This document shows, one piece after another, positions 22,290 through 36,705 of a stretch of 37,160 nucleotides of DNA. The stretch is from Actinomycetes bacterium (GTDB lineage Bacteria; Actinomycetota; Acidimicrobiia; Acidimicrobiales; JAJZXF01): positions 1 to 37,160 of the forward strand of contig JAJZXF010000019.1 in NCBI GenBank assembly GCA_021802485.1, read 5' to 3'. Under the pieces are notes generated by a model, which worked only from the letters and a program-made list of their open reading frames with translations, was not told the origin of the DNA and searched no databases. The position numbers were made by a program, and so were the translations under genes. Every line of letters starts with the position of its first letter. The stretch's first letter is position 1.

Positions 22290-24110
22290 ATGAGGTTCGC
22301 ACTCACAGCTAGCGCCAGCATGCACTCGAAGCACAACGTCGCTGGCAATGACCAACGCCAGAAGCCCGATACCCGAATCCGCCAGTTCAGGAAGCCCGCC
22401 GCGGGTGCTTCAATAGCTTCAGTTTCAAGGCGTGCGATAAGAGCGGGGCGTTTATTGGCAATCACGTTCAGCGTTCTCGCAGGGTTGCTCGTGACAACAC
22501 AAACAGGCGCATTTGCACTCACAAACGTTCCCGCCTCAGCTGCATCACAGTCGGGAAGCAACGCGGCCACATGGTCGCGAGTCGCGACGCCGAACACCTC
22601 ATCATCACAGAACAACTACCTTTCCGGCGTCTCGTGCACAGGGCCCAGCTTTTGCGTTGCTGTCGGTTCGTACTCTTCGACCGGGGACTCCCTCAGTGCC
22701 ACGAACATCCACAACCTCCTGCTCACCTGGAACGGCGTCTCCTGGTCACTTGACTCCGCTGCATCGCTTTCAACCTCGGCCTCCCAGCACAACTCCCTCG
22801 ATGGCGTCTCGTGTGCGTCACCTACGTTCTGCGTGGCCGTCGGCCACTACTTCAACGGGACTTCCAACCAGAACCTCCTTCTCACCTGGAACGGCACGAG
22901 CTGGTCCCTCGACTCGTCACCATCGCTGTCAACATCGACGTCCCAAGATAACCGGCTGACCAGCGTCTCTTGTGCGTCACCTACGTTCTGCGTGGCTGCG
23001 GGTTATTACGGCGGGATCACCACCGTACGTCAGAACCTCCTTCTCACGTGGGACGGCACGAGTTGGTCCCTCGATTCGTCACGGTCGCTGTCAACATCGA
23101 CGTCACTGCCAGGCTCAACATTCACGTCACTACCAAACAGGCTATACAGCATCTCTTGTGTGTCTGCGAGGTTCTGCATGGCTGCAGGCAACTTCGGCGG
23201 GGAGGGCTCGGGTACATTGCCTGAAAACCTTATTCTCAACTGGAACGGCGTCTCCTGGTCGCTCGACTCCTCAGCGTCGCTGTCTACCTCGCAGGATTAC
23301 CAGGATTACAACCGCCTTGAGGGCATCTCGTGTACAAGCTCCGCATTCTGCGTTGCGGCTGGCTATTACGACCCGAACGGACCGACGGGACAGCAAGATC
23401 TCATTCTCACCTGGAATGGAGCCAACTGGTCCCTCGACTCCTCAGCGTCGCTGTCGACCTCGCCATCCCAGGATGACTGGCTTTTCGGCGTCTCGTGCGC
23501 CAGCACGACTCTTTGTGTTGCCGTAGGTCAGTACGCCTCAGCGGGATACCAGAGCCTCCTGCTCACCTGGGACGGCAGCAGCTGGACACTGGACTCATCG
23601 CCGTCGCTCTCGCCTGGTGGCGGGCAAGGTAGCACCATTGTCGGCGTGTCATGCACAAGCACCACTGGAGCATCTTGCGTCGCTGCGGGTTCATACAACA
23701 ACGGCATATATGAGCGGACCCTCGCCCTTGCTTATGGAGCGATGTGGGGATATCGTTTCGTCGCAACAGACGGCGGGATCTTCAGCTTCGGCACCGCTGC
23801 CTTCTACGGCTCGATGGGGGGAAAGCACCTGAACGCTCCAATAGTCGGCATGGCAGCTACACCAGATGGCAAGGGGTACTGGTTCGTAGCATCAGACGGT
23901 GGAATCTTTAGCTTCGGGGATGCGAAGTTCTACGGCTCGATGGGTGCAAAGCACCTGAACGCTCCGATAGTTGGCATGGCAGCTGATCCCGTCACGGGCG
24001 GTTACTGGTTCGTAGCATCAGACGGGGGCATCTTCAGCTTCGATGCCCCGTTCTTTGGTTCCATGGGTGGAAAGCACCTGAACGCTCCAATCGTCGGCAT
24101 AGCCATGTGA
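22290..24110 (+). CDS. Secreted seven-repeat protein with three C-terminal DGGIFSFG repeats
   Basis: The 606-residue product has a basic n-region of about 50 residues, a hydrophobic stretch ([16 protein letters not shown]) and an Ala-rich likely cleavage zone (PASAAS, about residue 88). Residues about 95-470 are seven repeats of about 50 residues, each with a GVSC...FCVAVG Cys pair and most with [15 protein letters not shown]; seven units suggest a seven-bladed propeller, with a disulphide per blade. Residues about 480-606 are three repeats ([31 protein letters not shown]) of the same module that ends the SGNH protein at 1222. It is probably a surface or matrix protein. AAGGAGG lies 12 nt before the ATG, at the end of the leader. 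No function can be named. Confidence 0.8.
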
Positions 24111-24137: not shown

Positions 24138-24216
24138 GGGCACCACCGCCGCAGATTGGGCCGCATGACACGCGTCATGCCTGCACCTAGCGGTAGAGGA
24201 TCCGCAATCCCTAACC
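24138..24216 (+). repeat. 79-bp dispersed repeat, copy A
   Basis: Seventy-two of 79 positions match copy B at 29279-29357 in the same orientation (hand count). It starts GGGCACCACCGCCGCAG, 28 bp after the secreted protein's stop. It may be an end of a lost mobile element; no inverted partner was seen. Confidence 0.7.
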
Positions 24217-24339
24217 CGAAGTTCGCCCCTGTGGTACGCCTGCAACATGACTACCTGGCGACACGCGTATCTCACATGACTACGCGTTGGCATGCATTTC
24301 TGGCCCCTGAGCCTAAGCGACCTGGGCAAATGAACGGCT

Positions 24340-24752
24340 CTTGGTGGGGCCGGAGGGAACTTCGGCCTAGCCGAGCGAAGGCCCTCATCGAGCACTACGC
24401 CCGGCGCATGACCATCGAGCAGCGCCTAGCCGAGATCATCCGGGCCTTCTGTGCTGATACGCTCTCGAGCGCAGTGAATCTCAACGTGGACCTCGATGTC
24501 ATGCTGGCAGTGCTCGCTCAAGCACTTCTGGCCGGGTTGCGCGCCCGGCTACCCAGCTACGCCCATGCGACGCCCGACACCATCCAGCGCCGGTTCCTGG
24601 AGACCCCCGGCCAGATTATCGCGACCGACAACACAATCACCGTCCGCCTGGAACGGCGCGCCTACTCACCAGTGCTACGCCAAGCCGACTTGCCCGCTCA
24701 GACCCGCGTGCCGTGCTGGGGAGACCGTATTCTACGCTTCGAGTTCTCCTGA
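24340..24752 (+). pseudogene. C-terminal fragment of a DDE transposase
   Basis: The track ORF begins at 24156, but recognisable sequence starts near 24340 and runs to the stop: RAKALIEHYARRMTIEQRLAEIIRAF holds a Tyr-x2-Arg-x3-Glu arrangement like the YREK signature of IS4-type transposases, followed by helical sequence and VRLERRAYSPVLRQADL. The catalytic Asp residues and the whole N-terminal part are missing. The upstream piece overlaps the 79-bp repeat and is not coding. Family assignment beyond 'DDE, IS4-like' is uncertain. It marks the start of a rearranged segment between the two leader copies. Confidence 0.6.
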
Positions 24753-24895
24753 AAGTTGTGGTGAATAGGCTGTGTGGAAATCGGCGCTAACGCATACTCG
24801 GGATATTTCTGACCCGCCGATTTGCCGAGACTATCCTGTTCACGTGCGCCTTTTCGAGATTGAGAGCGGACCTGAGTATGCATTAGGGGGCCGGG

Positions 24896-25055
24896 CTTAT
24901 CACAGAAGGAGTGCTATAACGATCGACACTTCCGGCTTCGCGCCCCGGTCAAGACCCACGTCGCTATGACCGTGCGATTGGCGTGAACAGCATGACAAAC
25001 CAGTTGTACAGTGTGGCTATCGAAAGCTGGCCCGAACGGCGCGGATCCAAGGAGG
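24896..25055 (+). ncRNA. Candidate structured leader, copy 2 (orphan)
   Basis: Second copy of the 160-nt leader. It keeps the GGAGTG/CACTTC hairpin with the same 13-nt loop, the later stems and the terminal AAGGAGG (25049-25055), but no secreted-protein gene follows: the nearest ATG (25077) stops after three codons. The XRE gene begins 37 nt downstream with its own probable promoter. The copy therefore looks like the residue of a duplicated leader-gene unit. Residual similarity continues weakly to about 25066. Confidence 0.45.
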
Positions 25056-25067
25056 TTCAATTAGGAA

Positions 25068-25083
25068 CTATCATATATGGTAG
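25068..25083. promoter_or_regulatory. Imperfect palindrome, candidate operator of the XRE gene
   Basis: CTATCATATATGGTAG matches its reverse complement at 14 of 16 positions. It lies 9 nt before the XRE start and overlaps the AT-rich region where a promoter is expected, so it may be the autoregulatory site of the toxin-antitoxin-like pair. Confidence 0.45.
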
Positions 25084-25092
25084 CCTAATGCC

Positions 25093-25431
25093 ATGCGACG
25101 GTACACCCCTGCATCTCACCTGATCCGCCGGGCGCGAAGAGAGGCCGGGATAACTCAATCCGAGCTGGCTGAGGCTGCCGGCATAACGCCAGGCCGGGTT
25201 AGCGACTACGAGACCGCCAAGATTGACCCCACGGTCGATATGTTCCTCCGACTGCTCGCTGCGACGGGCAATACCATCAGGTTGGCTCATCCGAGCGAGG
25301 CGGACTTCGCCAACCCGTATGTGAGCGCGGTCAGCCTGGCAGACGTCCTGGATTTTGCCGACTCCGTGATGACGACCAAGAACGCCGTGAGCAGAAGTAA
25401 GCCCACCCGCGGCACAAAGGGAGTGGCGTGA
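25093..25431 (+). CDS. XRE-family HTH regulator, putative antitoxin
   Basis: The 112-residue protein opens with a helix-turn-helix domain (about residues 8-62): LIRRARREAGITQSELAEAAGITPGRVSDYETAKIDP, the classic XRE arrangement with the recognition helix at TPGRVSDYE. The C-terminal 45 residues are helical then Lys/Arg-rich. Its stop overlaps the start of the nucleotidyltransferase gene (GTGA), so both proteins are made together. In such pairs the HTH protein is usually the antitoxin and represses its own promoter; the palindrome just upstream is a candidate site. No Shine-Dalgarno sequence is close to the ATG, so initiation may be leaderless. Confidence 0.8.
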   Translation: MRRYTPASHLIRRARREAGITQSELAEAAGITPGRVSDYETAKIDPTVDMFLRLLAATGNTIRLAHPSEADFANPYVSAVSLADVLDFADSVMTTKNAVSRSKPTRGTKGVA

Positions 25432-26033
25432 GAGAGAGACACTGCACGTCACCAGGCCAGCGGTCGTTCTCAGATCTCCTTGTCTTGTTGCACCAAGAAC
25501 TGAGCGCTGCCAACGTTGACCACGCTTTTGGCGGTGCGCTTGCCCTGGCGTTCCATGTGGTGAGAGCAAGGGCCACCGAAGACATTGACCTGTCGGTATC
25601 GGCAAGCTCCAAGAAGGTTTCGGACGTCTTCCGCGCCCTGCCGGCGGGCGTTAAGGGGGACGGCCGTTCGGTGAAGATTGCCGAGACCACAGGAGCGGTA
25701 AAGCTCCGGTGGTTCCGTGGCATCTCTGTCAACCTGTTCTTCCCTACAAACGACTTCCTGCGCCTCGCCCTCAACAGGGCCGAGACGCACAGATACCAAG
25801 GCGTCGGCCTGCCGTTTATCACGGCTACAGACCTCACCGTGTTAAAGGCGACGTTCAACAGAGGCACAGACATTGGGGGCAAAGAGAAGGACTGGCTTGA
25901 CATCCGAATGATGCTGGAAGCAGGCACGCCAGACGTTAAGGATGCCATGGCCTGGATAGAGCGCCTAGAGGGACCGAACAGTAGTGCCCTGCAGAAGCTG
26001 TCCGCTCTCGCTCAAGAGACGATGACCCAATAA
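25428..26033 (+). CDS. AbiEii/MNT-like nucleotidyltransferase, putative toxin
   Basis: The 201-residue protein carries the polymerase-beta nucleotidyltransferase signature: GGALALAFHVVRARATEDIDLSV, i.e. a GG motif followed by the metal-binding DID. A basic segment LKATFNRGTDIGGKEKDWLDIRMML follows and the C-terminus is helical. AbiEii and related minimal nucleotidyltransferases act as toxins in type IV-like systems or modify partners by adding nucleotides; the HTH gene upstream is the usual partner type. GTG at 25428 overlaps the XRE stop. The pair looks intact and is the only complete-looking system in the island with no visible defect. Confidence 0.75.
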   Translation: MRERHCTSPGQRSFSDLLVLLHQELSAANVDHAFGGALALAFHVVRARATEDIDLSVSASSKKVSDVFRALPAGVKGDGRSVKIAETTGAVKLRWFRGISVNLFFPTNDFLRLALNRAETHRYQGVGLPFITATDLTVLKATFNRGTDIGGKEKDWLDIRMMLEAGTPDVKDAMAWIERLEGPNSSALQKLSALAQETMTQ

Positions 26034-26735
26034 GCGCCAACGTCACCCAGACCCGAACTCAAGATTACGCCGCCACATTCTCGCAACTCACCAGGGATGA
26101 GGCCGTGAGGCTTCAGGCGCTACGATAGCTATGGATCTGGGGAACCTCGCGTGGTTCCGGGCAGCGAAGGCGGTGCAGCGATTGATCAATGCTCACACCC
26201 CGGGTCGCCGTGTTATATGTGTACACCTGCCCTGGGCGTGTTATATCAATCCAGCCGGAATTGGGCCGGACCTCCAGCACGTGAGCCACTCGCTATGCGA
26301 GCCGTAGCTGTTGTTGGACAAGCCAGGCCTCGACAATCTCGACAGGGGGAGCCGGTCGTGCGTACTGTGAGGCTGTTTTGCTTGAGGCAACAGGCGCACG
26401 GAGAGAGATCCAGATGACGAATATCCTGCTCGTCGCGCATCCGTGCTTCAAGAGCCCGATTCTGCCTCCGCTGGGTCCCTTGGAGCGCAGCGGCGGTCCC
26501 TGGAGCGCCGCTCTGTCAGCTCTTCGCTTATATTGGGATTAGGTCACGTGCGTCCGACCGGCTGGTGCGCGTCCGCAGAGAGGAACTGGGGCGACAGATC
26601 GGCAACAAGGCACGAAGCCAGTCGGACAATGGGCCAGGCCCAGTCCTCTTCGGGATGACGTCCTCGTGCCCTGCGGATCCCGACCGAGATCGGCCCCACC
26701 CAGCAGTACCTAAATGACCTCTTCGGCCTCGACGC
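26034..26735. other. About 700 bp without a supportable gene
   Basis: No conserved domain is seen. One short frame, 26414-26542 (+), starts MTNILLVAHPCFKSP with a GAGAGA-type upstream sequence and stops after 42 residues; it could be the beginning of a lost gene. A 10-bp direct repeat CGTGTTATAT occurs at 26209 and 26237. The segment reads as decayed DNA between two toxin-antitoxin modules. Confidence 0.4.
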
Positions 26736-27392
26736 TTACGCCCCCAAGTGACGAGTCGGGGAATACACCGGCAGGCACCAAATAAGCCTGCTGAACTGGC
26801 CAACCGCCCGATCACAATAAGCTAGCCCGGAAAGTCCCGCTAGTGCATTGCGGCCCGCGCCGGTAGTTCGCGGCCATCGCCCGCCACCTCGACCGAAACC
26901 CCGAGACGATCGGGGACCACCTAAGCCGCATGCAGGTTCATGGCAACCGCAGAAGGCCGGTGCCCGGATACCAGAAAGTGCTACCGTTCGCTCACGCGAG
27001 CCAAAGAAGTCACGGGGCGTCTCAACGGCGATGCCCTGGAAGGAGCCAAGGCCAAGAAGGTCCTCATCACCGGAAACGATGTAATCGGCAGCCCCCTCGA
27101 CCGCCGCCTCAAGCACACGGTTATCGCTCTCATCGCCGACGACAGCGAAGACGCGGCTGGAGAGCACCACAACGCCGCTTGCTTCGACAAGGTCGGCGAG
27201 CTTTCCTCCCCCCTCGATGACCCTCGCCAGCTTCGGGTACAAGAGTACGCGGCGCAGCTCAGCAAGGAGGGGCGGGCTGGTCACGAGTGTGACCCGGCCA
27301 TCCAGCACAGCGTCGAGAACCGCTGCTGGCGCTCCCCGCCACCCGAGCCCGGACACGATCACATTTGTGTCAAGGACAGCCCGCAGGGTCAC
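26736..27392 (-). CDS. PIN-domain toxin (VapC-like) with an unusual C-terminal tail
   Basis: The first about 135 residues form a PIN-domain ribonuclease: AVLDTNVIVSG (first Asp), LLAELRRVL (Glu), GDESDNRVLEAAVEGAADYIVSGDEDLL (further acids) and GIAVETPRDFF near the usual end of the family. Toxins of this kind cut RNA and are held by the antitoxin encoded just upstream. The frame then runs on for about 80 more residues (RAPAFCGCHEPACGLGG, Gly/Arg-rich) that look non-homologous, as if the normal stop had been lost by frameshift or deletion. GTG at 27392 overlaps the antitoxin stop as GTGA. Whether the long form is active is unknown. Confidence 0.78.
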   Translation of the reverse strand: MTLRAVLDTNVIVSGLGWRGAPAAVLDAVLDGRVTLVTSPPLLAELRRVLLYPKLARVIEGGGKLADLVEASGVVVLSSRVFAVVGDESDNRVLEAAVEGAADYIVSGDEDLLGLGSFQGIAVETPRDFFGSRERTVALSGIRAPAFCGCHEPACGLGGPRSSRGFGRGGGRWPRTTGAGRNALAGLSGLAYCDRAVGQFSRLIWCLPVYSPTRHLGA

Positions 27393-27670
27393 GCAACCGT
27401 CCGCGCCGCAGCGATCGCCTCGTCGATAACAGACACATCAAGGCCTGCGTCTGCGACGCTCTTGCGAACCTGCGCCAAGCGTTCTCGCAGTTCTTCGCGA
27501 GCTACCCGCCGTCGAGCCTCGGTCAACCGCTCATACTCGGCGGGACTCACGATAACCGCCAGCACTTCTCCCCGGCGCGTCAGCACAACCGCCTCATCCT
27601 CGGCGGCTACCTCTTCGGCAAGCTGCCCCAACCGCGCCCGTGCTTTGTCAACGCCAATCGTCCGCTCCAT
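27389..27670 (-). CDS. Phd/YefM-type antitoxin
   Basis: The 93-residue protein starts MERTIGVDKARARLGQLAEEV and continues VVLTRRGEVLAVIVSPAEYERL, the standard Phd/YefM N-terminal DNA-binding fold; the helical C-terminal part binds the toxin. GGGAGT precedes the ATG by 5 nt (minus sense). The stop overlaps the toxin start. It should neutralise the PIN toxin downstream and repress the shared promoter, which probably lies within the AT-richer 27671-27715 segment. Confidence 0.85.
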   Translation of the reverse strand: MERTIGVDKARARLGQLAEEVAAEDEAVVLTRRGEVLAVIVSPAEYERLTEARRRVAREELRERLAQVRKSVADAGLDVSVIDEAIAAARTVA

Positions 27671-28043
27671 GTCGTACTCCCTATCGGTCTATCGTACGTC
27701 TAACCTTACGCCAGACATGACGCGTCGTCAAGACTGTCTGCGGACGTCCGCTCACCGCGCAGCGCTCGATCCGAGAACGCCGTGTGAGGTCGACCAGACC
27801 CAGACGCCGACCCTGCTGCGTTGCCTCTCTGGAGCTGGCCAGGTACGACGATTTCCCGTGCAAGTATCGGACCCGGACTTCCCGGTCGTGGACTACGTGG
27901 TAAGTCCACCGTCAAGCGATGCCCGAGGCAACATCGCCGAGCTAAGCAACCACCTGACCCTTGTCCCGAGCGGTCACCCCCGGCGTTGAGCGCGCCGAAG
28001 AGTTCGGGCAGATGAGCGGCTGTGGGCGATCCAGTGACCTCGC
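27671..28043. other. Spacer between two toxin-antitoxin modules
   Basis: Both modules are on the minus strand and this 373-bp spacer holds the probable promoter of the Phd-PIN pair close to 27671-27715. Short ORFs on both strands have no recognisable domain; I see nothing else. Confidence 0.4.
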
Positions 28044-28442
28044 CTACCAGATTGTCTCGACCACTCCTGACTTATGGATGCGCCGGTCGGCAGTGACCAG
28101 CGGTAGGTCGGAGGCGAGCGCGGTAGCGACGATAAATCGGTCCCAAGGATCGCGCAGTAGGCCCCGGTCGATCGTGGTGAACCTCCCGGCGACCGCTTCA
28201 TCGACGCAAGAGAAGGCCATCATGGGGGACGAGGACACCTGTTCGCTAATAGTGTGCAGCTCTTTCTGGCTGACTCCGCGGGTGGTCTTGGTCACGTACC
28301 ACGGCTCGACCAGGGTTACGATCGACATGATCACCCCATCACTCGCGACCGCCTCGTCGAGGGTCTAGCGCGCTCGATCAGACAGCCTCGGTGAGTCGTG
28401 GCCGTACCAGACGATCGCGTGGGAGTCCGCTACAACCCTCAC
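28044..28442 (-). pseudogene. VapC-type PIN toxin interrupted by an in-frame TAG
   Basis: GTG at 28442 overlaps the antitoxin stop (GTGA) and starts MRVVADSHAIVWYGHDSPRL, the PIN N-terminus with its first Asp. After 25 codons a TAG (28367-28365) occurs, and the same frame then continues for 106 residues: LDEAVASDGVIMSIVTLVE, then PWDRFIVATALASDLPLVTADRRI, the normal end of a VapC. The reconstructed length of about 132 matches the family. The single nonsense codon disables the toxin, unless it is read through or translation restarts at an internal GTG/ATG (28334), which would lack the first active-site Asp. The track lists only the downstream part. Confidence 0.8.
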
Positions 28443-28678
28443 GACAGCTCGAAGTCGCTCCTCGCCACCTCGCTTGCATGCTCGAAGTCCTCCCAGCTCG
28501 GCTCCGGAAACCCCTTCAGCGAGCCACGGAAGCCCGATGCAGCGGCTGGCGGCTCGGCAAGGATGATCCGCAGGTGAGAACCTGGTCGAACACCGAGCGC
28601 TGCGAGCCGCTCGGCGGGAATGCTGCCGTCGCCCGCTACGACCACTTCGTAGCCTTGGCCAGCGCCTGCGGTGCTCAC
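28439..28678 (-). CDS. AbrB/SpoVT-type (VapB) antitoxin
   Basis: The track ORF extends to 28882, but the conserved part begins around VVVAGDGSIPAERLAALGVRPGSHLRIIL, the swapped-hairpin AbrB DNA-binding domain; the tail (SLKGFPEPSWEDFEHASEVARSDFELS) is the toxin-binding type. Start GTG 28678 gives 79 residues, the common size, and has a TATACT hexamer 7 nt upstream, so a leaderless start fits. The upstream track sequence is antisense to the IS66-like relic. The antitoxin is intact while its toxin partner carries a nonsense codon. Confidence 0.75.
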   Translation of the reverse strand: MSTAGAGQGYEVVVAGDGSIPAERLAALGVRPGSHLRIILAEPPAAASGFRGSLKGFPEPSWEDFEHASEVARSDFELS

Positions 28679-28686
28679 AACCACAA

Positions 28687-28692
28687 GTATAC
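28687..28692 (-). promoter_or_regulatory. -10-like TATACT before the AbrB antitoxin
   Basis: On the minus strand TATACT is followed by 7 nt and then GTG AGC at 28678. No -35 of standard spacing is obvious. This hexamer supports choosing the short antitoxin start. Confidence 0.45.
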
Positions 28693-28751
28693 CCTGGCGT
28701 GGGCTGACCATCGCAGCAACAGCTTTCGACTTCGTGACGAATAAGAGAGCC

Positions 28752-28940
28752 TGGTTCCACACCGCGTCCAACGAACTCTGCACCTTGCTGTACGCGGACG
28801 TGACCCGACGCAAGGAAGGCACCAAGCGCACTTGGCTGTTCCCGAGCTTCACCGGCACAGCGGTCCATGACCATCTCGTCAAGTACTTCGGCTATGACAA
28901 CGCGACGCACCAGGTCTGTTGTGCTCGTCTGATACGCGAT
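28752..28940 (+). pseudogene. IS66-like transposase fragment
   Basis: About 63 residues (WFHTASNELCTLLYADVTR... PSFTGTAVHDHLVKYFGY... HQVCCARLIRD) match the centre of IS66-type transposases, including the VHD Asp and the place where they read C-NAH-LREL. Only this part is recognisable; the frame then diverges. It overlaps on the opposite strand the spurious 5' extension of the antitoxin ORF. Confidence 0.6.
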
Positions 28941-29357: not shown

Positions 29358-29505
29358 GAGGTGACGAGGCTAGAAGCCTTGTCAGCAAGGGTGGCGTAGT
29401 TCAGCGCACTGGAAGTGGCTGACCAGGCGCTCAAACTCGTAGCACAGAGCCGATGGGATCAAGAGCTCATACAAATTGACGATAGGCAAGGCGCTCGCAG
29501 CGGCG

Positions 29506-29511
29506 CATACT
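29506..29511 (+). promoter_or_regulatory. -10-like CATACT before the beta-helix gene
   Basis: CATACT ends 6 nt before ATG 29518 and no Shine-Dalgarno sequence is visible. A TTGACG lies at 29476, too far for a standard 17-nt spacer. Confidence 0.35.
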
Positions 29512-29517
29512 GATGCC

Positions 29518-31476
29518 ATGAGACCATATCCGGGAATTCGTGGGCCCCATCGTTCCTCTCGACACAGCGCTAGCGCGCGCGTTTCGGGTCGGAGGCGCAG
29601 TCGGCTTGGCGTAAAGGGCTTGGCACGCAACATCCTGCGACCACGCACCTTTGCGATCGTTGCCGCTGGGATGCTCCTTTCGAGCGGCGCCTACGCTTTC
29701 ACCGCGTCGAACACACTACCCACAACCACTGCTGGCGCTGGAAGTGGCGCGATCAGTGGCTACGACGTGACCGGGGTTTCTTACACGATGTCTACCGATC
29801 CAGGCAGCTACAGCCAAGCAAGCGCTTCCAACCCGATGATCTCATCCATCACCTTCACCCTCACCCAGAATAACTCTTCTGGAACTCCAGCAACGCCAGC
29901 GAACACAAGCGTCGTCGACGCCGTGATCACCTCGACTACGAGCGGCGTACAACCCGTCAACTACTCCACCTGCAGCGCTCCAAGCGGGTCTGACGTCTGG
30001 ACGTGCTCCCTCGTCGGCACCCAGGCGATGAGCGTCCACGATGCTACGACCTTGAACGTCACTGCCTCGGGTAACTCGAACAGCATCGCTAGCGCGGCTG
30101 GTGTCGGGACCGAGTACAACGTATCGAGCACCGGCACGGATTCGTCTGGCTGCGGTCCAGTATCTGGCCCCTGCAAGACGATCCAGTACGCGGTAGACGA
30201 GGCGTCCCCGGGAGACACCATCAACGTAGAGGCCGGCACATACACAAACTCCTCCACCTCGCCGCTCGTCACCGTCAACAAGGCGCTCACCTTCATCGGC
30301 AACAACTCGACCATTACCGGCACGGGCCCCAGCTTCCTCCTCGGAAGCACCAGTGCCGGGGTGACGGGTGTGACGATCGAGGGGTTCGACTTCTCGAACA
30401 TCACCGGCAGCGGCTACAACGGCGTGATCACCGTGCCTGGCAACGGCGCGGGTGACGTCGTCATCCAGAACAACACGTTCAACACAACAACCGACGAGGC
30501 GATCGGCTACCACGGGAACCCGGGCCTTGCCGCTCCGCTCGGCACGGGCTTCAGCATCCTGAACAACACGATCACGAATGTGACCGGCAACAGCGGCTCT
30601 CCCAGGAGCGGAATGTGGATCGGGAACTTGAGCAACAGTGTCATAGCTGATAACACCATCACCACCACCGCCTACGACGGCCTAGTAGTTTCCGGCGCCG
30701 GCCAGGGAGACGAGCAGAACAACGCTGTCTACGACAACACCGTGTCGTCAGTGCCCGTAGCGGGCATCCAAGTCGCCTTTGGCAACAACGACCAGGTCGT
30801 CGGCAACACGGTATCTGACGCCGGCAACTCTACAATCGCATCTGGTCCGGTGAGTGGTCGCAACTGCGCAATTTGTCTGTACAATACCGGCCAGACCTCC
30901 ATTACCGTAAAGAGCAACTCCGTCACGGGTAGTTACCAAGGGATCGGCGTCGGCCAGTCCACAGCTAGCCCGGGCGCACTCGGGTCCGGGATCGTGATCA
31001 GCTTCAACAACATCGTGAACGACCCCCCGTCATCTTCACCTGCTGGCGGCGCTGGCCTCGTCGACAACGCCACAAGCGGTACGCTGGATGCGGTCGACAA
31101 CTGGTGGGGCTGTAACGCTGGGCCCAACACGTCCGGTTGTACGAGCATCATTGACACAAGCGGCTCGAGCGTAAATGCGACACCGTTCCTCGTGCTGAGC
31201 GCTACCGCTTCCCCGACGTCGATCTCATCGGGCAGCAACTCCACCATCACCGCGTCGCTCACTCAGAACTCCGCTGGGTCCAACACCACCTCTCAGGGAA
31301 TGCTGCCCAACGGCATCAAGGTGGACTTCTCCACGACCTCCGGAACCATGAGTCCAGCTACCGCGACCACAACCAACGGAACTGCATCTTCCACCCTGGG
31401 CTCACCCACGGCTACGGCTACGGTCACAGTCACGGTTGCCGGCCAGAGTGTGGAGGTCACGGTTGCGGTCAGCTGA
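29518..31476 (+). CDS. Exported protein: paralogous N-terminal domain plus right-handed beta-helix
   Basis: From ATG 29518 the product is 652 residues; the track start (TTG 29476) would add 14 residues. After an Arg-rich n-region comes ILRPRTFAIVAAGMLLSSGAYAF, an export signal, and then a domain to about residue 190 (GAISGYDVTGVSYTMSTDPGS.., SGVQPVNYSTCSAP..DVWTC) shared with the protein at 31859. Residues about 205-560 are a parallel beta-helix of the polysaccharide-lyase/NosD type: GPCKTIQYAVDEASPGDTI, then many I.NNTI / V.GNTV turns with Asn ladders. The last 90 residues are Ser/Thr-rich with an Ig-like look. It is likely a surface protein that binds or processes a polysaccharide; no catalytic residues were identified. 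Confidence 0.8.
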   Translation: MRPYPGIRGPHRSSRHSASARVSGRRRSRLGVKGLARNILRPRTFAIVAAGMLLSSGAYAFTASNTLPTTTAGAGSGAISGYDVTGVSYTMSTDPGSYSQASASNPMISSITFTLTQNNSSGTPATPANTSVVDAVITSTTSGVQPVNYSTCSAPSGSDVWTCSLVGTQAMSVHDATTLNVTASGNSNSIASAAGVGTEYNVSSTGTDSSGCGPVSGPCKTIQYAVDEASPGDTINVEAGTYTNSSTSPLVTVNKALTFIGNNSTITGTGPSFLLGSTSAGVTGVTIEGFDFSNITGSGYNGVITVPGNGAGDVVIQNNTFNTTTDEAIGYHGNPGLAAPLGTGFSILNNTITNVTGNSGSPRSGMWIGNLSNSVIADNTITTTAYDGLVVSGAGQGDEQNNAVYDNTVSSVPVAGIQVAFGNNDQVVGNTVSDAGNSTIASGPVSGRNCAICLYNTGQTSITVKSNSVTGSYQGIGVGQSTASPGALGSGIVISFNNIVNDPPSSSPAGGAGLVDNATSGTLDAVDNWWGCNAGPNTSGCTSIIDTSGSSVNATPFLVLSATASPTSISSGSNSTITASLTQNSAGSNTTSQGMLPNGIKVDFSTTSGTMSPATATTTNGTASSTLGSPTATATVTVTVAGQSVEVTVAVS

Positions 31477-31858
31477 GTCCCGCCGCGGGGCCAACAGTTG
31501 ACATGACCTCGTGCTCGCGCCCGCTGCAACTGCCACTACCGCGAGCACGAGGGTAGTTCGCTCCACCAGGATAGTTTGCACCAAGAGAGCAGCTTCAGCG
31601 ATGAAAGCCCACTCCAGATGCTCTCGCTCGCGGGCAGACACCACCTGCTGTGGACAAAGCGAACCCTGTCCTTTGAGCTTCACCGCCACGTCAAGGTGCT
31701 CGCAAGCTCGTAACTCGCGACGTGCTAGCGCATCTCACAGCGAGTGCGGACTAGCAATGCTGGTAGCTGGGACTCGATCAGGTTATCAAAGCAGAGCTCG
31801 CTGCATTGGGCTCGCTCTGCATCACTACAGCAACCCTTTCCGCTACTGCAGCGCTCAC
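31477..31858. other. Spacer between convergent paralogues
   Basis: A minus-strand frame at 31402-31689 contains a hydrophobic run (LVLAVVAVAAG) but has no domain I know and its 3' part is antisense to the beta-helix gene. No gene can be supported. Confidence 0.35.
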
Positions 31859-32500
31859 CTAGCTACCTGACGCTGTGACGCTGAAGCCAGTCGCATCAAG
31901 CGCACTCATCGCCTTGGTCCCGTCGAGCGAGCATCTCCAGACATCAGAGTGGCTTGGAGCGCTGCATGTGGAGTAGTTGACCGGCTGTACGCCGCTAGAC
32001 GTCGAGGTGACGACGGCGTCGACACCTCTAGTGTTCGCGGTCGTTGCCGGGACCCCAGAAGAGTTCTTGGTGAGGGTGAACGTAACGGAGGCGATCATGG
32101 GGTTCGAAGCGCTCGCGCTCTCATAGCTGCCTGGATCGGTAGAAAACGTGTACGACACCTGGCCAACGTCGTAGCCACTGATTGCCACGCTGCCGGCGCC
32201 CAATGCGCTCGCCGGCATGCTGGCCGATGCCGTAAGAGCATAGGCCCCGCTCGACAAGAAGACCCCCGCAGCAACGATCGCAAAGGTGCGCGGCCGCAGG
32301 AACTCCAGTACAAGGCCCTTTAGACGTACCAAAGTGCGCCTTTGCTCCCTAGAGGCGCCACGTTCCCTACAGCTGCGACCGCCCTCTTCGCCCGCGCTTT
32401 GCACGGGCACGAAGACGGAGCAGACCATGCTCTGATGTCTTCCCCGATCTCTAGTCACTCCATTCCTATCGGCAATCGCGACCATCTTCCACATCATCAA
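31859..32500 (-). CDS. Exported single-domain paralogue of the beta-helix protein's N-terminal domain
   Basis: The product (up to 213 residues) has an Arg-rich n-region and FLRPRTFAIVAAGVFLSSGAYAL, nearly identical to the paralogue, then one domain: GSVAISGYDVGQVSYTFSTDPGS, SASNPMIASVTFTLTKNSSG, SSGVQPVNYSTCSAPSHSDVWRC and FSVTASG at the end. Two conserved Cys probably form a disulphide. The GAYA(F/L)TAS signal region and the beta-rich domain resemble the small secreted TasA/camelysin-like or pilin-like subunits found in actinobacteria, but the family is not assigned. The start is uncertain: ATG at MVCSVF (about 32428) or a nearby GTG is more likely than 32500. Confidence 0.65.
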   Translation of the reverse strand: MMMWKMVAIADRNGVTRDRGRHQSMVCSVFVPVQSAGEEGGRSCRERGASREQRRTLVRLKGLVLEFLRPRTFAIVAAGVFLSSGAYALTASASMPASALGAGSVAISGYDVGQVSYTFSTDPGSYESASASNPMIASVTFTLTKNSSGVPATTANTRGVDAVVTSTSSGVQPVNYSTCSAPSHSDVWRCSLDGTKAMSALDATGFSVTASGS

Positions 32501-32570
32501 TCTGCATTAGCACCCTCTCTCGCCCGCACTAGGCCTCGATACCCGCCATACCAAAGTCCCGTACGAGGTG

Positions 32571-32576
32571 TATGAT
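32571..32576 (+). promoter_or_regulatory. -10-like TATGAT of the YbjQ operon
   Basis: TATGAT ends 6 nt before GTG 32583. The spacing fits a leaderless start and argues against the track start at 32568, which would contain the hexamer. Confidence 0.4.
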
Positions 32577-32582
32577 TCCCTC

Positions 32583-33047
32583 GTGCCTGACGATGATGAT
32601 CTGAGCGTCGTAGGCGGCTCCGACCGCCAGGGCGGCATCGCTGACCAGAGCGACCCTTCCGACCCGCTCTCGTTCGACATGCTGAGCGCGTCCCTGCGCG
32701 CTGATGCAGGGGATCTGCGCACCTTCGTAGATGTGCTCGCGACAAAACTTGCTGATGCGCTACCAGGGTCTGTGAGCATCGAACGAGAGCGCGCCCACGG
32801 CTTCCGGCACCGCAATGAGCAGGGTTCGGTCAAGACGCTCACCGTCACCATCGGTGAGCGTCGTCTCAGCCTCTTGCGTGATGGCAACGGTGTTGTGGCG
32901 CGCTCCGCAACGATCGTCCGGGGGATCACTTTGAAGACCGAGGACATACCAATTGCCGCGTGGGTGGAGCAGCTGGCTCATGCGCTCTCCGAAGAAGCCC
33001 AGCGAAACATTGCAAGCCATGACGCGCTTGCGCGCCTGTTGACATGA
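32583..33047 (+). CDS. Small protein of unknown function, first gene of the YbjQ operon
   Basis: The 154-residue product begins with an acidic, probably disordered segment (DDDDLSVVGGSDR). It continues with FDMLSASLRADAGDLRTFVDVLATKLADAL, a mixed beta part (VSIERERAHGFRHRNEQGSVKTLTVTIGERRLSL) and a C-terminal helix (WVEQLAHALSEEAQRN). I do not recognise a named domain. It has no signal peptide or membrane segment. It is followed after 12 nt by the first double-YbjQ gene, so the three genes form an operon. From memory, a protein of this size often precedes YbjQ pairs in actinobacteria. Confidence 0.7.
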   Translation: MPDDDDLSVVGGSDRQGGIADQSDPSDPLSFDMLSASLRADAGDLRTFVDVLATKLADALPGSVSIERERAHGFRHRNEQGSVKTLTVTIGERRLSLLRDGNGVVARSATIVRGITLKTEDIPIAAWVEQLAHALSEEAQRNIASHDALARLLT

Positions 33048-33059
33048 GATCGGAGTAGC

Positions 33060-34058
33060 TTGGCACCGCAACCACCCACAGATGATGCCGCTCGCGTAGC
33101 AGCTCGTGCTCAGTCAGCTGAGCGCTTGGCGGCGGGCCAGCTCCCACTCGAGTCCATACAGCGCCTTACGGAGCTCTCTGCGTCGGGCACCTACACGAGC
33201 GACCTGAGCGTGAACGAGCACCACGCAATCCGATCAGTAGGTTTCCAACCGGTAGGCCAGGTAATGGGCGCCTCCGTGTTCAACATCTCATATACCGGCT
33301 CGTGGCGTTGCGGATTCATGCCTACCGGCTACGGCTACGGCTACGGGCAGGTCGGCTGGAACCCAGGGGGCGCGACCCCGCTCGAGCTCACACCACTGAC
33401 CAACGCTCTCGACATGCTTCGTCATCAGGCTCTCAGCCGGATGCTCGCAGAGTGTTCAGCGCTTGGCGGTGACGGTGTAGTGGGCGTTAGCGTCCGCTTC
33501 GGACGCGGCCGATTCCCCCAGCAGCCGTACGCGGTCGAGCTCGAGCTGATCGGAACTGCTGTACGAGCAGTTGGCAACGTACGCCCCAGGCAACCGTTCG
33601 GCTCAGACCTTTCCGGGCAGGACTTCGCCAAGCTCTTGATGCAGGGCTGGGTCCCCTGCGGGTTGCTGCTCGTAGCGACCTCTTGGATCCGCCATGACGA
33701 CTGGCTCACCCGGAGTCAGGAGAGCCGCTTGGGGACGACAAATGTCGAGATTACCGGTCACTCCGAGCTTGTCCACGCTGCTCGCCATGCGGTCCGCCAG
33801 CGCCTTGGAGCTGACGCGGCTCGCATGGGCGCCGAAGGCGTTGTCGTCGCAAACATGACGCTTGCACTTCACGAGCAGGAGTGTTCCAACGGAGGCGGCC
33901 AGGACCATGTCGTCGAGACTTCCGCAATGGGTACCGCGATCACTCGCTACCGCCACGAGCGCGTTCGAGCCCCGAGGCATAAGTCCCTAGCAGTCTTGCC
34001 AGTCGGAAAATCATCCGGCTTTTCACGCTCTACATCAAACACCCTTATCGGCGGATGA
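33060..34058 (+). CDS. Double YbjQ-domain (UPF0145) protein 1
   Basis: The 332-residue protein contains two YbjQ-like domains. Domain 1 (about 40-165) begins TYTSDLSVNEHHAIRSVGFQPVGQVMG and ends near GGDGVVGVSVRF..ELELIGTAV; domain 2 (about 178-295) begins PFGSDLSGQDFAKLLMQGWVPCGLLL and ends near GAEGVVVANMTL..SAMGTAI. This is the YbjQ/UPF0145 ('heavy-metal-binding') fold, known to form ring-shaped pentamers, function unclear. A Gly/Tyr-rich insertion (TGYGYGYGQVGWNPGG) interrupts domain 1. TTG at 33060 follows GATCGGAG. It may assemble with the paralogue downstream. Confidence 0.78.
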   Translation: MAPQPPTDDAARVAARAQSAERLAAGQLPLESIQRLTELSASGTYTSDLSVNEHHAIRSVGFQPVGQVMGASVFNISYTGSWRCGFMPTGYGYGYGQVGWNPGGATPLELTPLTNALDMLRHQALSRMLAECSALGGDGVVGVSVRFGRGRFPQQPYAVELELIGTAVRAVGNVRPRQPFGSDLSGQDFAKLLMQGWVPCGLLLVATSWIRHDDWLTRSQESRLGTTNVEITGHSELVHAARHAVRQRLGADAARMGAEGVVVANMTLALHEQECSNGGGQDHVVETSAMGTAITRYRHERVRAPRHKSLAVLPVGKSSGFSRSTSNTLIGG

Positions 34059-34139
34059 AGTCGCTCCCAGCGAAGCCGCAGAAAAAGATTCAGTTATTAG
34101 TTCAATCGAAAGCTCGAGACAACTCCAGGAGGATGGTTC

Positions 34140-34988
34140 ATGGCGAAAAAAGCTGAAGCAAACGAGGCGCCTGCCGAAGCGCCAATGGACGTGTCGATCC
34201 CGAAAGAGGCGATGCGCAGGCTGGCTGAGTTGGAGCCCGGTGCTGCAGGCCGCCAGATCTTTACCAGCGATCTGAGCGTAAACGAGTTCCTCTTAGTGAA
34301 AGAGGTTGGCTTTCATCCGCTGGGCCTCGTCTTCGGAAGCTCGATCTATCATGTCGGCATCCAGTTCTCTCGCTGGGGAAACAGCCAGGAGCTAGACGTG
34401 CTCAGCCAGGCGATGTACAAAGCGAGAGAGCTCGCGATGGGACGCATGGAGGCAGAGGCCGACATCCTCGGAGCCGACGGTGTCGTAGGAGTGCGCCTCG
34501 AGGTGGAGCTCAAGGAGTGGGGCTCTGACATAGCAGAGTTCATAGCTGTTGGGACCGCAGTGAAGGCAGAGGATGGAAAGTCCTGGCGGAACAACAAGTC
34601 GAAACCCTTCACGAGCGACCTCTCCGGCCAGGACTTCTGGACACTCCTGCAAACTGGGTACGCTCCCCTAGGGCTAGTGATGGGAACCTGCGTCTACCAC
34701 ATCGCCCACCAGCGCCTCGGCTCCGTGCTCGGGAACATCGGACGCAATGCCGAACTCCCAACCTTCACCCAGGCACTCTATGAGGCAAGAGAGCTTGCCA
34801 TGGACCGGATGCAGCGAGAGGCCGAGGAACTCGAGGCCGAGGGCATCGTTGGCGTACACCTCTCACAGCTAAGTCATTCGTGGGGATCGCACACCACCGA
34901 GTACCTCGCGATCGGTACCGCGGTACGCCCTGCGCGCGAAGGCGGCGTGATGGAACGCCCCGGCCTCGTGCTCCCACTTAGCGACTAG
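34140..34988 (+). CDS. Double YbjQ-domain (UPF0145) protein 2
   Basis: The 282-residue paralogue has domain 1 at about 40-140 (FTSDLSVNEFLLVKEVGFHPLGLVFGSSIYHVG ... GADGVVGVRLEVEL ... FIAVGTAV) and domain 2 at about 158-272 (PFTSDLSGQDFWTLLQTGYAPLGLVMGTCVYHIA ... EAEGIVGVHLSQL ... YLAIGTAV). Each domain carries the same order as in the protein upstream: a first domain with SDLSVNE and a second with SDLSGQDF. AGGAGG precedes ATG 34140 at 8 nt. No signal peptide or membrane segments are seen, so it is cytosolic. The pair probably forms mixed rings; ligand and role are unknown. Confidence 0.8.
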   Translation: MAKKAEANEAPAEAPMDVSIPKEAMRRLAELEPGAAGRQIFTSDLSVNEFLLVKEVGFHPLGLVFGSSIYHVGIQFSRWGNSQELDVLSQAMYKARELAMGRMEAEADILGADGVVGVRLEVELKEWGSDIAEFIAVGTAVKAEDGKSWRNNKSKPFTSDLSGQDFWTLLQTGYAPLGLVMGTCVYHIAHQRLGSVLGNIGRNAELPTFTQALYEARELAMDRMQREAEELEAEGIVGVHLSQLSHSWGSHTTEYLAIGTAVRPAREGGVMERPGLVLPLSD

Positions 34989-35008
34989 GCCGAGCTCGGC
35001 ACTCGGCC
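34988..35008 (+). terminator. 7-bp hairpin after the YbjQ operon
   Basis: GGCCGAG-ctcggca-CTCGGCC begins at the last base of the stop codon of the final gene. There is no T-run. The 34989-35302 spacer otherwise holds only a short tandem repeat and no gene. Confidence 0.5.
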
Positions 35009-35114
35009 GCTCACGATCGTATTGGGCCTCATCATCGGGCAGCAATGGATAGTGTGATCCGCGCCTCTCAACGCGAGGCTCACACCAGGTAGTTTTGGCG
35101 CACGTTCTAGTCAA

Positions 35115-35158
35115 CCAGTAGCTCCGCTGCAAGAGGCCAGTAGCTCTGCTGCAAGAGG
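35115..35158. repeat. Two-copy 22-bp tandem repeat
   Basis: CCAGTAGCTCCGCTGCAAGAGG is followed directly by a second copy with one change (C to T). It lies between the YbjQ operon and the lipoprotein gene; no role is evident. Confidence 0.75.
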
Positions 35159-35302
35159 CTGGATGTAATTCCCGCCAGCAGTCACGCCGCGCTCGGCTAC
35201 TACATGCGGCTCGGGAGGAGGCATACCGCTGCCCCGCACGGATCCTTCCCGAAGTTCGGGCTCTTAAGCCAGCGACGCCCGGCCGCCACGCGTAACTTCT
35301 CG

Positions 35303-35959
35303 CTAGCCTTTCGAACTAGCGCTGCGGCCAGCGTGCTTGCCACCGGCAGGGAGTATCACGACAATCTTGGCGGTTATCGAATCGGTTGCGCTCGTTGATC
35401 CAAGGACGCGAACCCGGTCTCCTGGATGCAGTGACGACGAAGATACGGTTGACCTTCCCATGCGGTAAGTGGTCGAAGAGGACGTCACGACAGATTCCGT
35501 CGTTCCGTTAGCGGAGGTCATTGTGAAGCCACCCGAAGTAACCTTGGTCACAGCGCCGATCACCTGGGCCGGTAGGACGATCACGATCTTGGCAGTCGGC
35601 TGGGCGGCCCCCGCAAGACGACCAACCCGCACCCGGTCCCCCACCGCTACGAGGGACTCCGATCCCCGGGTATGCCCCTCCCGGAATACTGTCGCAGACG
35701 AGATAACGAATGACTTGAGCGTGCCATTTGGCTCACGAACCGTGATGCTGCCCGGCAGGAGAGCGGTCACGGTCTCCGCTCTCGCATGTCCCTTCCGATG
35801 GTGATGAGAAAGCGCGCCGGTACTGCTGGACGTTGTCGATGCCGGCTGGCCGGAGGAGCAGGCGGCTGCCAGCATAGCCACCGCAGCCAGTACAGCAGTC
35901 TTTGCGACGCAAGCGATCGTGCGTTCATGAAAACGGTGGGCTAGGGAAACGGTTCGCAA
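35303..35959 (-). CDS. Lipoprotein with two DUF5666-like beta domains
   Basis: The track start (36175) is too long. TTG at 35959 has AAAGGAG 7 nt upstream and gives 218 residues. The signal (AKTAVLAAVAMLAAAC) ends in a lipobox at Cys of AACSSG, so the protein is anchored outside the membrane. A Ser/Thr linker precedes two similar 60-70-residue units: VTALLPGSITVREPNGTLKSF..LVAVGDRVRVG and VTKVTSGGFTMTSANGTTESV..LHPGDRVRVLG, each with the 'GDRVRV' strand typical of DUF5666. Function is unknown. It stands alone on the minus strand, converging with the YbjQ operon. Confidence 0.75.
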   Translation of the reverse strand: MRTVSLAHRFHERTIACVAKTAVLAAVAMLAAACSSGQPASTTSSSTGALSHHHRKGHARAETVTALLPGSITVREPNGTLKSFVISSATVFREGHTRGSESLVAVGDRVRVGRLAGAAQPTAKIVIVLPAQVIGAVTKVTSGGFTMTSANGTTESVVTSSSTTYRMGRSTVSSSSLHPGDRVRVLGSTSATDSITAKIVVILPAGGKHAGRSASSKG

Positions 35960-36705
35960 CTCAGGGCTCCTTTGTATCTGTGCGTATTTTGTGTGTGTCT
36001 GCATCTTGCCTCTGTGCTGTTTGTTCTTGCCTGCTAGAACTTCCACGGCTGCGGATCGAGGTCCCCAGCATACGGCATACGACCATACAGCGGACGTCGT
36101 CAGGCACGCGCCCACCAAGAAAACGGCGAGGCGAGCGTAGCTGGGCCGGAGGTACGCGCCGGAGTGAACCGGCATGCACTGGACTGCGACGACGAGCAGT
36201 CTAGGCGCCGTCAGGAAGGCCGGCGAGCCGCTCGGCCTAACGCTCCAGGGAACTAGAGCTTGAGCCTACCTGGCCTGCTACGTACCTCCATCACGGTAAA
36301 ATCTGGCCGGAGTCACCAAACGAGAGCGGTAGCGCCGACATTATCCACGATCACTGGGCTCGTACACGACATCCTGGACGTCGCACTACCCAGAGCCTTG
36401 GCGCTGCTATCAGCCACCCGCAGCCTTCCTGCGGGCTCGGCTGCGAATCTTCGGGCGCTGGAGCCCGAGCGAATACGACCTTGCGAATCCAGTTCGTTTT
36501 CGGTGTGACCTCGGCGCATTCGTCTTCTGCGATGAACTCCAGGGACCGCATCCTCGACCCAGCTGACGGGACGAACCTCGCCTCCAACGTGCTCAGCTCC
36601 ACGCTCAAGCGTATCTCACCAAACTCCAACACCAGCTACTGGGGCTACTCGACGGTCCGTCAACGCGTTGCCAGTGAGCGATGTGGAGGTTCGTAAGACG
36701 GGTGC
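35960..36705. other. About 750 bp with no supportable gene
   Basis: The A-rich stretch at about 35975-36025 (minus sense) probably contains the lipoprotein's promoter region. Beyond it, short ORFs on both strands have no domains, Shine-Dalgarno sites or coding character I can defend. Confidence 0.4.

What the first reader, a model, noticed from the sequence alone, without database searches (positions are those of the whole stretch)
29518..32500. Convergent paralogues: a single domain and the same domain fused to a beta-helix
The two proteins share the export signal and about 150 residues, but one is a single-domain protein and the other carries a beta-helix and a Ser/Thr-rich end. A small subunit plus a larger decorated subunit is the layout of surface fibres with a major subunit and an adhesin tip. 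No sortase or signal peptidase gene is visible beside them.
Basis: inference. Interest (0 to 1): 0.5.

Follow-up and report, generated by a model that had tools for sequence, protein, structure and literature searches.

The report
SipW-type surface subunit and beta-helix fusion
Two facing genes in an uncultured actinobacterium encode a small exported building block and the same block fused to a large beta-helix surface protein; both carry the unusual export signal of a matrix-fibre-like system whose dedicated signal peptidase lies elsewhere in the genome, so they probably add a decorated subunit to a cell-surface fibre or coat.

Summary
A (29476-31476 +; likely start TTG 29620) and B (31859-32500 -) are convergent, share an export signal plus a ~125-residue domain (116/160 residues identical; dN/dS about 0.26), and only A continues into a beta-helix and an Ig-like end. 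The missing processing enzyme exists: contig C123 of the same genome has three more single-domain paralogues directly upstream of a signal peptidase fused to DUF5305. It is TIGR02228, above cut-off, with the ER/SipW-type Ser-His pair instead of LepB's Ser-Lys. No sortase was found. In all 13 loci with the domain outside this pair, such a peptidase is the next gene; the window pair is the exception. A's beta-helix has close relatives with ordinary signal peptides, one with a C-terminal membrane anchor, but no shared domain: A is a surface protein re-mounted on the subunit. I infer a SipW-processed, sortase-independent surface polymer with A as decorated subunit. The shared domain models well as all-beta (pLDDT 85) with a conserved, loosely predicted N-terminus, but neither profile comparison nor Foldseek links it to TasA/camelysin. 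'Works like TasA' is plausible; 'is TasA' failed the tests made. Polymer formation and 'major plus tip' roles are untested. New variant of a known kind.

The parts
29476..31476 (+). Protein A, subunit domain fused to beta-helix and Ig-like domain (ORF 666 aa; ATG at 29518; likely start TTG 29620, giving MARNILRPRTF...)
   Evidence: start by analogy with relatives beginning MRNLLKPRTF
29620..29697 (+). Export signal of A, ending ...SSGAYA before FTASN
   Evidence: cleavage position inferred, not shown
29698..30075 (+). Shared subunit domain of A (mature N-terminus FTASNTLPTTTAGAGSGAISGY)
30091..31185 (+). Right-handed beta-helix of A
31186..31473 (+). C-terminal Ig-like (invasin/Big_1-type, weak) domain; the C-terminal membrane anchor of relative L041 is absent here
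31859..32500 (-). Protein B, single-domain paralogue (ORF 213 aa; likely start TTG 32332)
31862..32236 (-). Mature domain of B (125 aa), modelled all-beta, pLDDT 84.7, first ~20 residues low confidence
32237..32332 (-). Export signal of B, ending ...SSGAYA before LTASA

Best explanation
A and B are an accessory pair of a SipW-type, sortase-independent surface-polymer system. Both are exported by Sec with an unusual signal peptide that, in this genome, occurs only on five proteins. The peptide is cut by the one dedicated ER/archaeal-type signal peptidase (fused to DUF5305) encoded on contig C123 with three further single-domain subunits, so the enzyme acts on A and B in trans. After cleavage the freed, highly conserved N-terminal segment (FTASNTxPxTTAGxGxGxISGY) probably docks into the beta-sandwich of a neighbouring subunit, as the N-terminal donor strand of TasA does, giving a fibre or coat. 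A is a decorated subunit: its domain is incorporated like any other and thereby displays a beta-helix plus Ig-like module, which in relatives is a free-standing surface protein with its own ordinary signal and, in one case, its own membrane anchor. The beta-helix most likely binds, or perhaps cuts, a polysaccharide. Shown by sequence: paralogy, unique signal, dedicated peptidase, fusion history. Inferred: cleavage by that peptidase, donor-strand polymerisation, co-assembly of A with B and the C123 subunits, adhesive role.
For: Own genome has five carriers of the domain, A, B and three on C123, and a search with the signal alone finds the same five, next hit E 0.16. C123 ORF 3791-5884 is TIGR02228 signal peptidase (62.6 bits, cut-off 51.85) plus DUF5305 (45.4 bits, cut-off 29); it is the only hit above cut-off for each family in the genome. 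In 13 of 13 loci holding the domain outside the window pair (own C123, genus mate, other genomes of the order and class, a Solirubrobacteraceae and a Saccharibacteria MAG) a peptidase of this kind is the next gene on the same strand. All 13 have Ser (SMxP) and His (HR[IV]) where the genome's own LepB (L020) has Ser and Lys. No sortase. First 30 mature residues are the most conserved stretch (3.03 against 1.81 bits) yet the first ~20 are the least confident of the model, the pattern expected of a strand given to a neighbour; in TasA the donor strand is residues 28-38, near the mature N-terminus (PMC9674648), and the most conserved residues lie in the protomer interface (PMC10151520). A's beta-helix relatives L040 (51%) and L041 (46%) lack the shared domain and have ordinary signals; L041 ends in a membrane anchor. 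L017 has a 967-residue fibronectin-III protein beside its peptidase.
Against: The shared domain shows no detectable relation to PF12389 members of the same class (hhalign probability 0.1%), no Pfam or NCBIfam match and no significant PDB neighbour (best Foldseek E 0.11; no TasA or pilin among the 50 listed). Polymerisation and co-assembly were not modelled. A and B lie on a different contig from the peptidase and are missing from the genus mate at the same place (genome 89% complete), so they are not core parts. B has lost some conserved N-terminal residues (F1, N5).
Confidence: 0.5

Rival explanations
1. Exported by the same SipW-type route but not polymeric: the shared domain is a wall- or membrane-associated mounting module, and A is a tethered beta-helix protein.
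For: No demonstrated relation to any polymerising family. A lost the C-terminal anchor seen in L041, so the domain may simply replace that anchor.
Against: The domain occurs almost always as a stand-alone small protein, often in two or three tandem copies beside the peptidase, more like a structural subunit than an anchor; conserved mature N-terminus.
Confidence: 0.3
2. The shared domain is a true but very diverged TasA/camelysin (M73) family member.
For: Same kind of signal and partner peptidase, all-beta domain; camelysin-family proteins are common in this class (38 of 345 genomes above cut-off), so a divergent branch is plausible.
Against: hhalign probability 0.1%; PF12389 finds nothing in the own genome; no TasA structure among the Foldseek matches listed; the domain is mostly about 100-135 residues against about 170 in the class's M73 members.
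Confidence: 0.2
3. The beta-helix of A is an enzyme, such as a polysaccharide lyase, epimerase or glucanase, mounted on the cell surface, rather than an adhesin.
For: Best structural neighbours include AlgE4 epimerase, GH87 glucanase and RbmB lyase.
Against: The adhesin PfbA is among the same matches; the model is modest (pLDDT 72, three sequences); no active site was tested.
Confidence: 0.3
4. The pair are decaying duplicates without function.
For: They lie beside toxin-antitoxin genes and a transposase remnant and are absent from the genus mate at this place.
Against: Both ORFs are intact; dN/dS about 0.26.
Confidence: 0.05

Closest known systems
tapA-sipW-tasA operon of Bacillus subtilis; sipW-calY operon of Bacillus cereus
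   Same: Small exported all-beta subunits with a special signal peptide, dedicated ER/archaeal-type signal peptidase in the same locus, no sortase; multiple paralogous subunits as in B. cereus (PMC10151520, PMC13082335).
   Different: Subunit domain not detectably homologous to the TasA/CalY family; peptidase fused to or followed by DUF5305-like sequence; no TapA-like gene identified; one subunit fused to a beta-helix protein and two subunits encoded away from the peptidase.
Archaeal thread filament (Saci_0406) and archaeal bundling pili
   Same: Donor-strand assembly of small beta subunits predicted to be cut by a signal-peptidase-I-type enzyme (PMC9715654).
   Different: No sequence or structure link found here; the archaeal bundling pili paper was not held and is known to me only through citing papers.
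Sortase-built Gram-positive pili with tip adhesins
   Same: Layout of small subunit plus larger adhesive subunit.
   Different: No sortase in the genome and a SipW-type route instead.
NosD/pectate-lyase-type beta-helix surface proteins
   Same: A's beta-helix; L040 and L041 are stand-alone relatives at 46-51% identity.
   Different: Those carry ordinary signal peptides and no subunit domain.

Membership tests
TasA/camelysin (Peptidase_M73, PF12389) | Match to the family profile | tested here: not met
   No PF12389 match to A, B or the C123 paralogues; none in own genome
TasA/camelysin (Peptidase_M73, PF12389) | Profile-profile similarity of the mature domain to M73 members | tested here: not met
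   hhalign probability 0.1%, E 0.61; 0.2%, E 0.36
TasA/camelysin (Peptidase_M73, PF12389) | TasA-type fold | tested here: inconclusive
   Confident all-beta model but no significant PDB match and no TasA among the 50 listed; single-chain model, coordinates not available for strand topology
TasA/camelysin (Peptidase_M73, PF12389) | Encoded with a SipW-type (Ser-His) signal peptidase | tested here: met
   Met for the family in 13 of 13 loci; for A and B the enzyme is elsewhere in the genome
TasA/camelysin (Peptidase_M73, PF12389) | Donor-strand polymerisation | not testable with these tools
   No multimer modelling; only the conserved, loosely modelled N-terminus fits
SipW / archaeal-type signal peptidase (TIGR02228), C123 ORF | Profile above curated cut-off | tested here: met
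   62.6 bits, cut-off 51.85; it does not reach the Bacillus SipW equivalog NF046067 (27.5 against 190)
SipW / archaeal-type signal peptidase (TIGR02228), C123 ORF | Ser-His instead of Ser-Lys | tested here: met
   Alignment with own LepB
Sortase-dependent pili | Pilus sortase in the genome | tested here: not met
   PF04203: no match in the own genome, 97% complete
Right-handed beta-helix proteins | Beta-helix fold | tested here: met
   Relatives match PF13229; model matches beta-helix proteins, E down to 1.9e-5
Invasin/Big_1 Ig-like domain | Profile match | tested here: inconclusive
   Only L041, 17.3 bits against a cut-off of 33

The most novel reading that the evidence does not exclude
An actinobacterial, sortase-independent fibre family, unrelated in its subunit to TasA but served by the same kind of signal peptidase, in which surface modules (beta-helix here, possibly fibronectin-III in L017) are loaded onto the fibre by fusing them to, or co-exporting them with, the subunit, and subunit pairs spread to other genome sites.
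Probability: 0.25. Interest if true: 0.65.

Novelty: new variant of a known kind. Interest (0 to 1): 0.45.

Why it matters
SipW-type fibre systems are worked out mainly in Bacillus and a few archaea. A subunit family without a Pfam or NCBIfam model, with its peptidase in every locus examined and a natural subunit-to-surface-protein fusion, would show how monoderm bacteria lacking sortase can mount large surface proteins, and gives a small, testable set of genes.

Tried and rejected
Viral contigs: no relative of B. Foldseek of the shared domain gave only insignificant beta-sandwich matches, reovirus fibre and P19-like among them, not used. Sigma-70 promoter scan found nothing. PDB sequence searches gave nothing useful. 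Full-length alignment of A with L040/L041 misaligned the signal regions, so the beta-helix was modelled alone (alignment A7). Idea that A's beta-helix occurs elsewhere in the own genome: rejected. Idea that the genome has a separate camelysin system: PF12389 absent. The archaeal bundling pili paper was not held.

Full report
What is there. The window is contig C128 of a 2.86 Mb, 152-contig genome, 97% complete. Protein A (29476-31476 +) and protein B (31859-32500 -) are convergent. Their DNA matches at 74% over 501 nt, from just before the export signal to the end of the shared domain and no further. The proteins are identical at 116 of 160 positions; changes concentrate in third codon positions, dN/dS about 0.26. 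In a tree of 20 relatives A and B are sisters (support 100/99); A's branch is short (0.028) and B's long (0.36), so A kept the older sequence and B drifted. This speaks mildly against B as the main subunit.

The missing enzyme. A search of the own genome with B found three more paralogues, all on contig C123, as single-domain genes on one strand. The next gene, same strand, is a 697-residue protein: an archaeal/ER-type signal peptidase (TIGR02228, 62.6 bits, cut-off 51.85) fused to DUF5305 (PF17231). Each family has one hit above cut-off in the genome. The ordinary LepB-type enzyme is elsewhere (L020). In the alignment the C123 enzyme and all 12 partners from other loci have His where LepB has Lys, besides the common Ser. 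No sortase was found.

Distribution. The domain is rare: 7 of 395 genomes of the class, plus hits in a genome-contig scan. In every locus outside the window pair (13 of 13, C123 included) the Ser-His peptidase is the next gene. A and B are therefore satellites of that system and must use the enzyme in trans, if they are processed by it (inference). The signal alone also picks out just these five proteins in the genome. In the genus mate the genes right of the pair (32568-36175) are conserved in order, but A and B are not there; a PIN-domain-like ORF lies nearby (the contig ends 1.8 kb beyond, genome 89% complete).

How A arose. A's beta-helix has relatives L040 (51% identity) and L041 (46%) with ordinary signal peptides and no shared domain; L041 continues through an Ig-like domain to a proline-rich linker and a C-terminal membrane anchor. 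A has the Ig-like domain but stops before the anchor. The simplest reading is that an existing surface protein lost its signal and anchor and was mounted on a duplicated subunit gene. The predicted structure of this part (pLDDT 72) matches beta-helix enzymes and the adhesin PfbA, so adhesion and polysaccharide modification both remain open.

The shared domain. AlphaFold2 gives an all-beta domain, pLDDT 84.7, pTM 0.78, with only the first ~20 mature residues uncertain. The first 30 residues are nevertheless the most conserved. That combination fits a strand that folds only in a neighbour. In TasA the donor strand is near the mature N-terminus (PMC9674648), and the most conserved camelysin residues lie in the protomer interface (PMC10151520). 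TasA's signal is not efficiently cut by E. coli LepB and is processed by SipW, described as ER-type (PMC10269814). Membership of the TasA/camelysin family, however, failed where tested by sequence: no PF12389 match, hhalign probability 0.1-0.2% against 14 M73 proteins from the same class; and no significant PDB neighbour was found.

Mechanism and limits. I commit to a SipW-processed surface polymer in which A is a decorated subunit, confidence 0.5. Export route and fusion history are well supported by sequence; cleavage, polymerisation, co-assembly and adhesion are inference. Whether A sits at a tip or along a fibre cannot be told. The starts of A and B are uncertain: the TTG codons are chosen by analogy with relatives, and the ribosome-binding site of A's TTG is not well placed.

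Novelty. The kind of system is known; the subunit family, its DUF5305-fused peptidase and the subunit-beta-helix fusion were not found in the papers searched, a limited library. I call it a new variant of a known kind.

Noticed in passing
L035:7956-10580 (contig labelled Candidatus Saccharibacteria, 821 kb): Subunit plus peptidase pair whose mature subunit is 87/106 and 83/106 identical to those of two Acidimicrobiaceae MAGs (L036, L037), although local GC (48-53%) matches its own contig and not the 62-63% of the others: looks like a gene transfer between an episymbiont-type lineage and actinobacteria.
   Followed up: partly
L036:4903-7629: One 908-residue ORF joins signal peptidase, a DUF5305-like region and a third exported segment starting with the same FTASNTVPASTAG motif.
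   Followed up: no
L016:9258-9638 and L017:3-2903: Other secreted proteins beside the peptidase: an RTX nonapeptide-repeat protein and a 967-residue fibronectin-III protein whose signal also ends in a FAASNDVPDTGAG-like motif.
   Followed up: no
24156-28882: Cluster next to the pair: transposase remnant, AbiEii-like nucleotidyltransferase, PIN toxin with Phd antitoxin, and a further small pair resembling VapC with an antitoxin.
   Followed up: no
1222-2904 and 22290-24110: Two large exported proteins with repeats of the form ADGGVFAFGSARFFGSMG / [18 protein letters not shown]; the first also has a GDSL lipase domain.
   Followed up: no
L015:9081-9653: Genus mate has a fourth ORF with the VAFTASNAVPVTYLGTGS motif followed by a different, charged sequence, between two subunit genes: a different substrate or a frame-shifted gene.
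   Followed up: no
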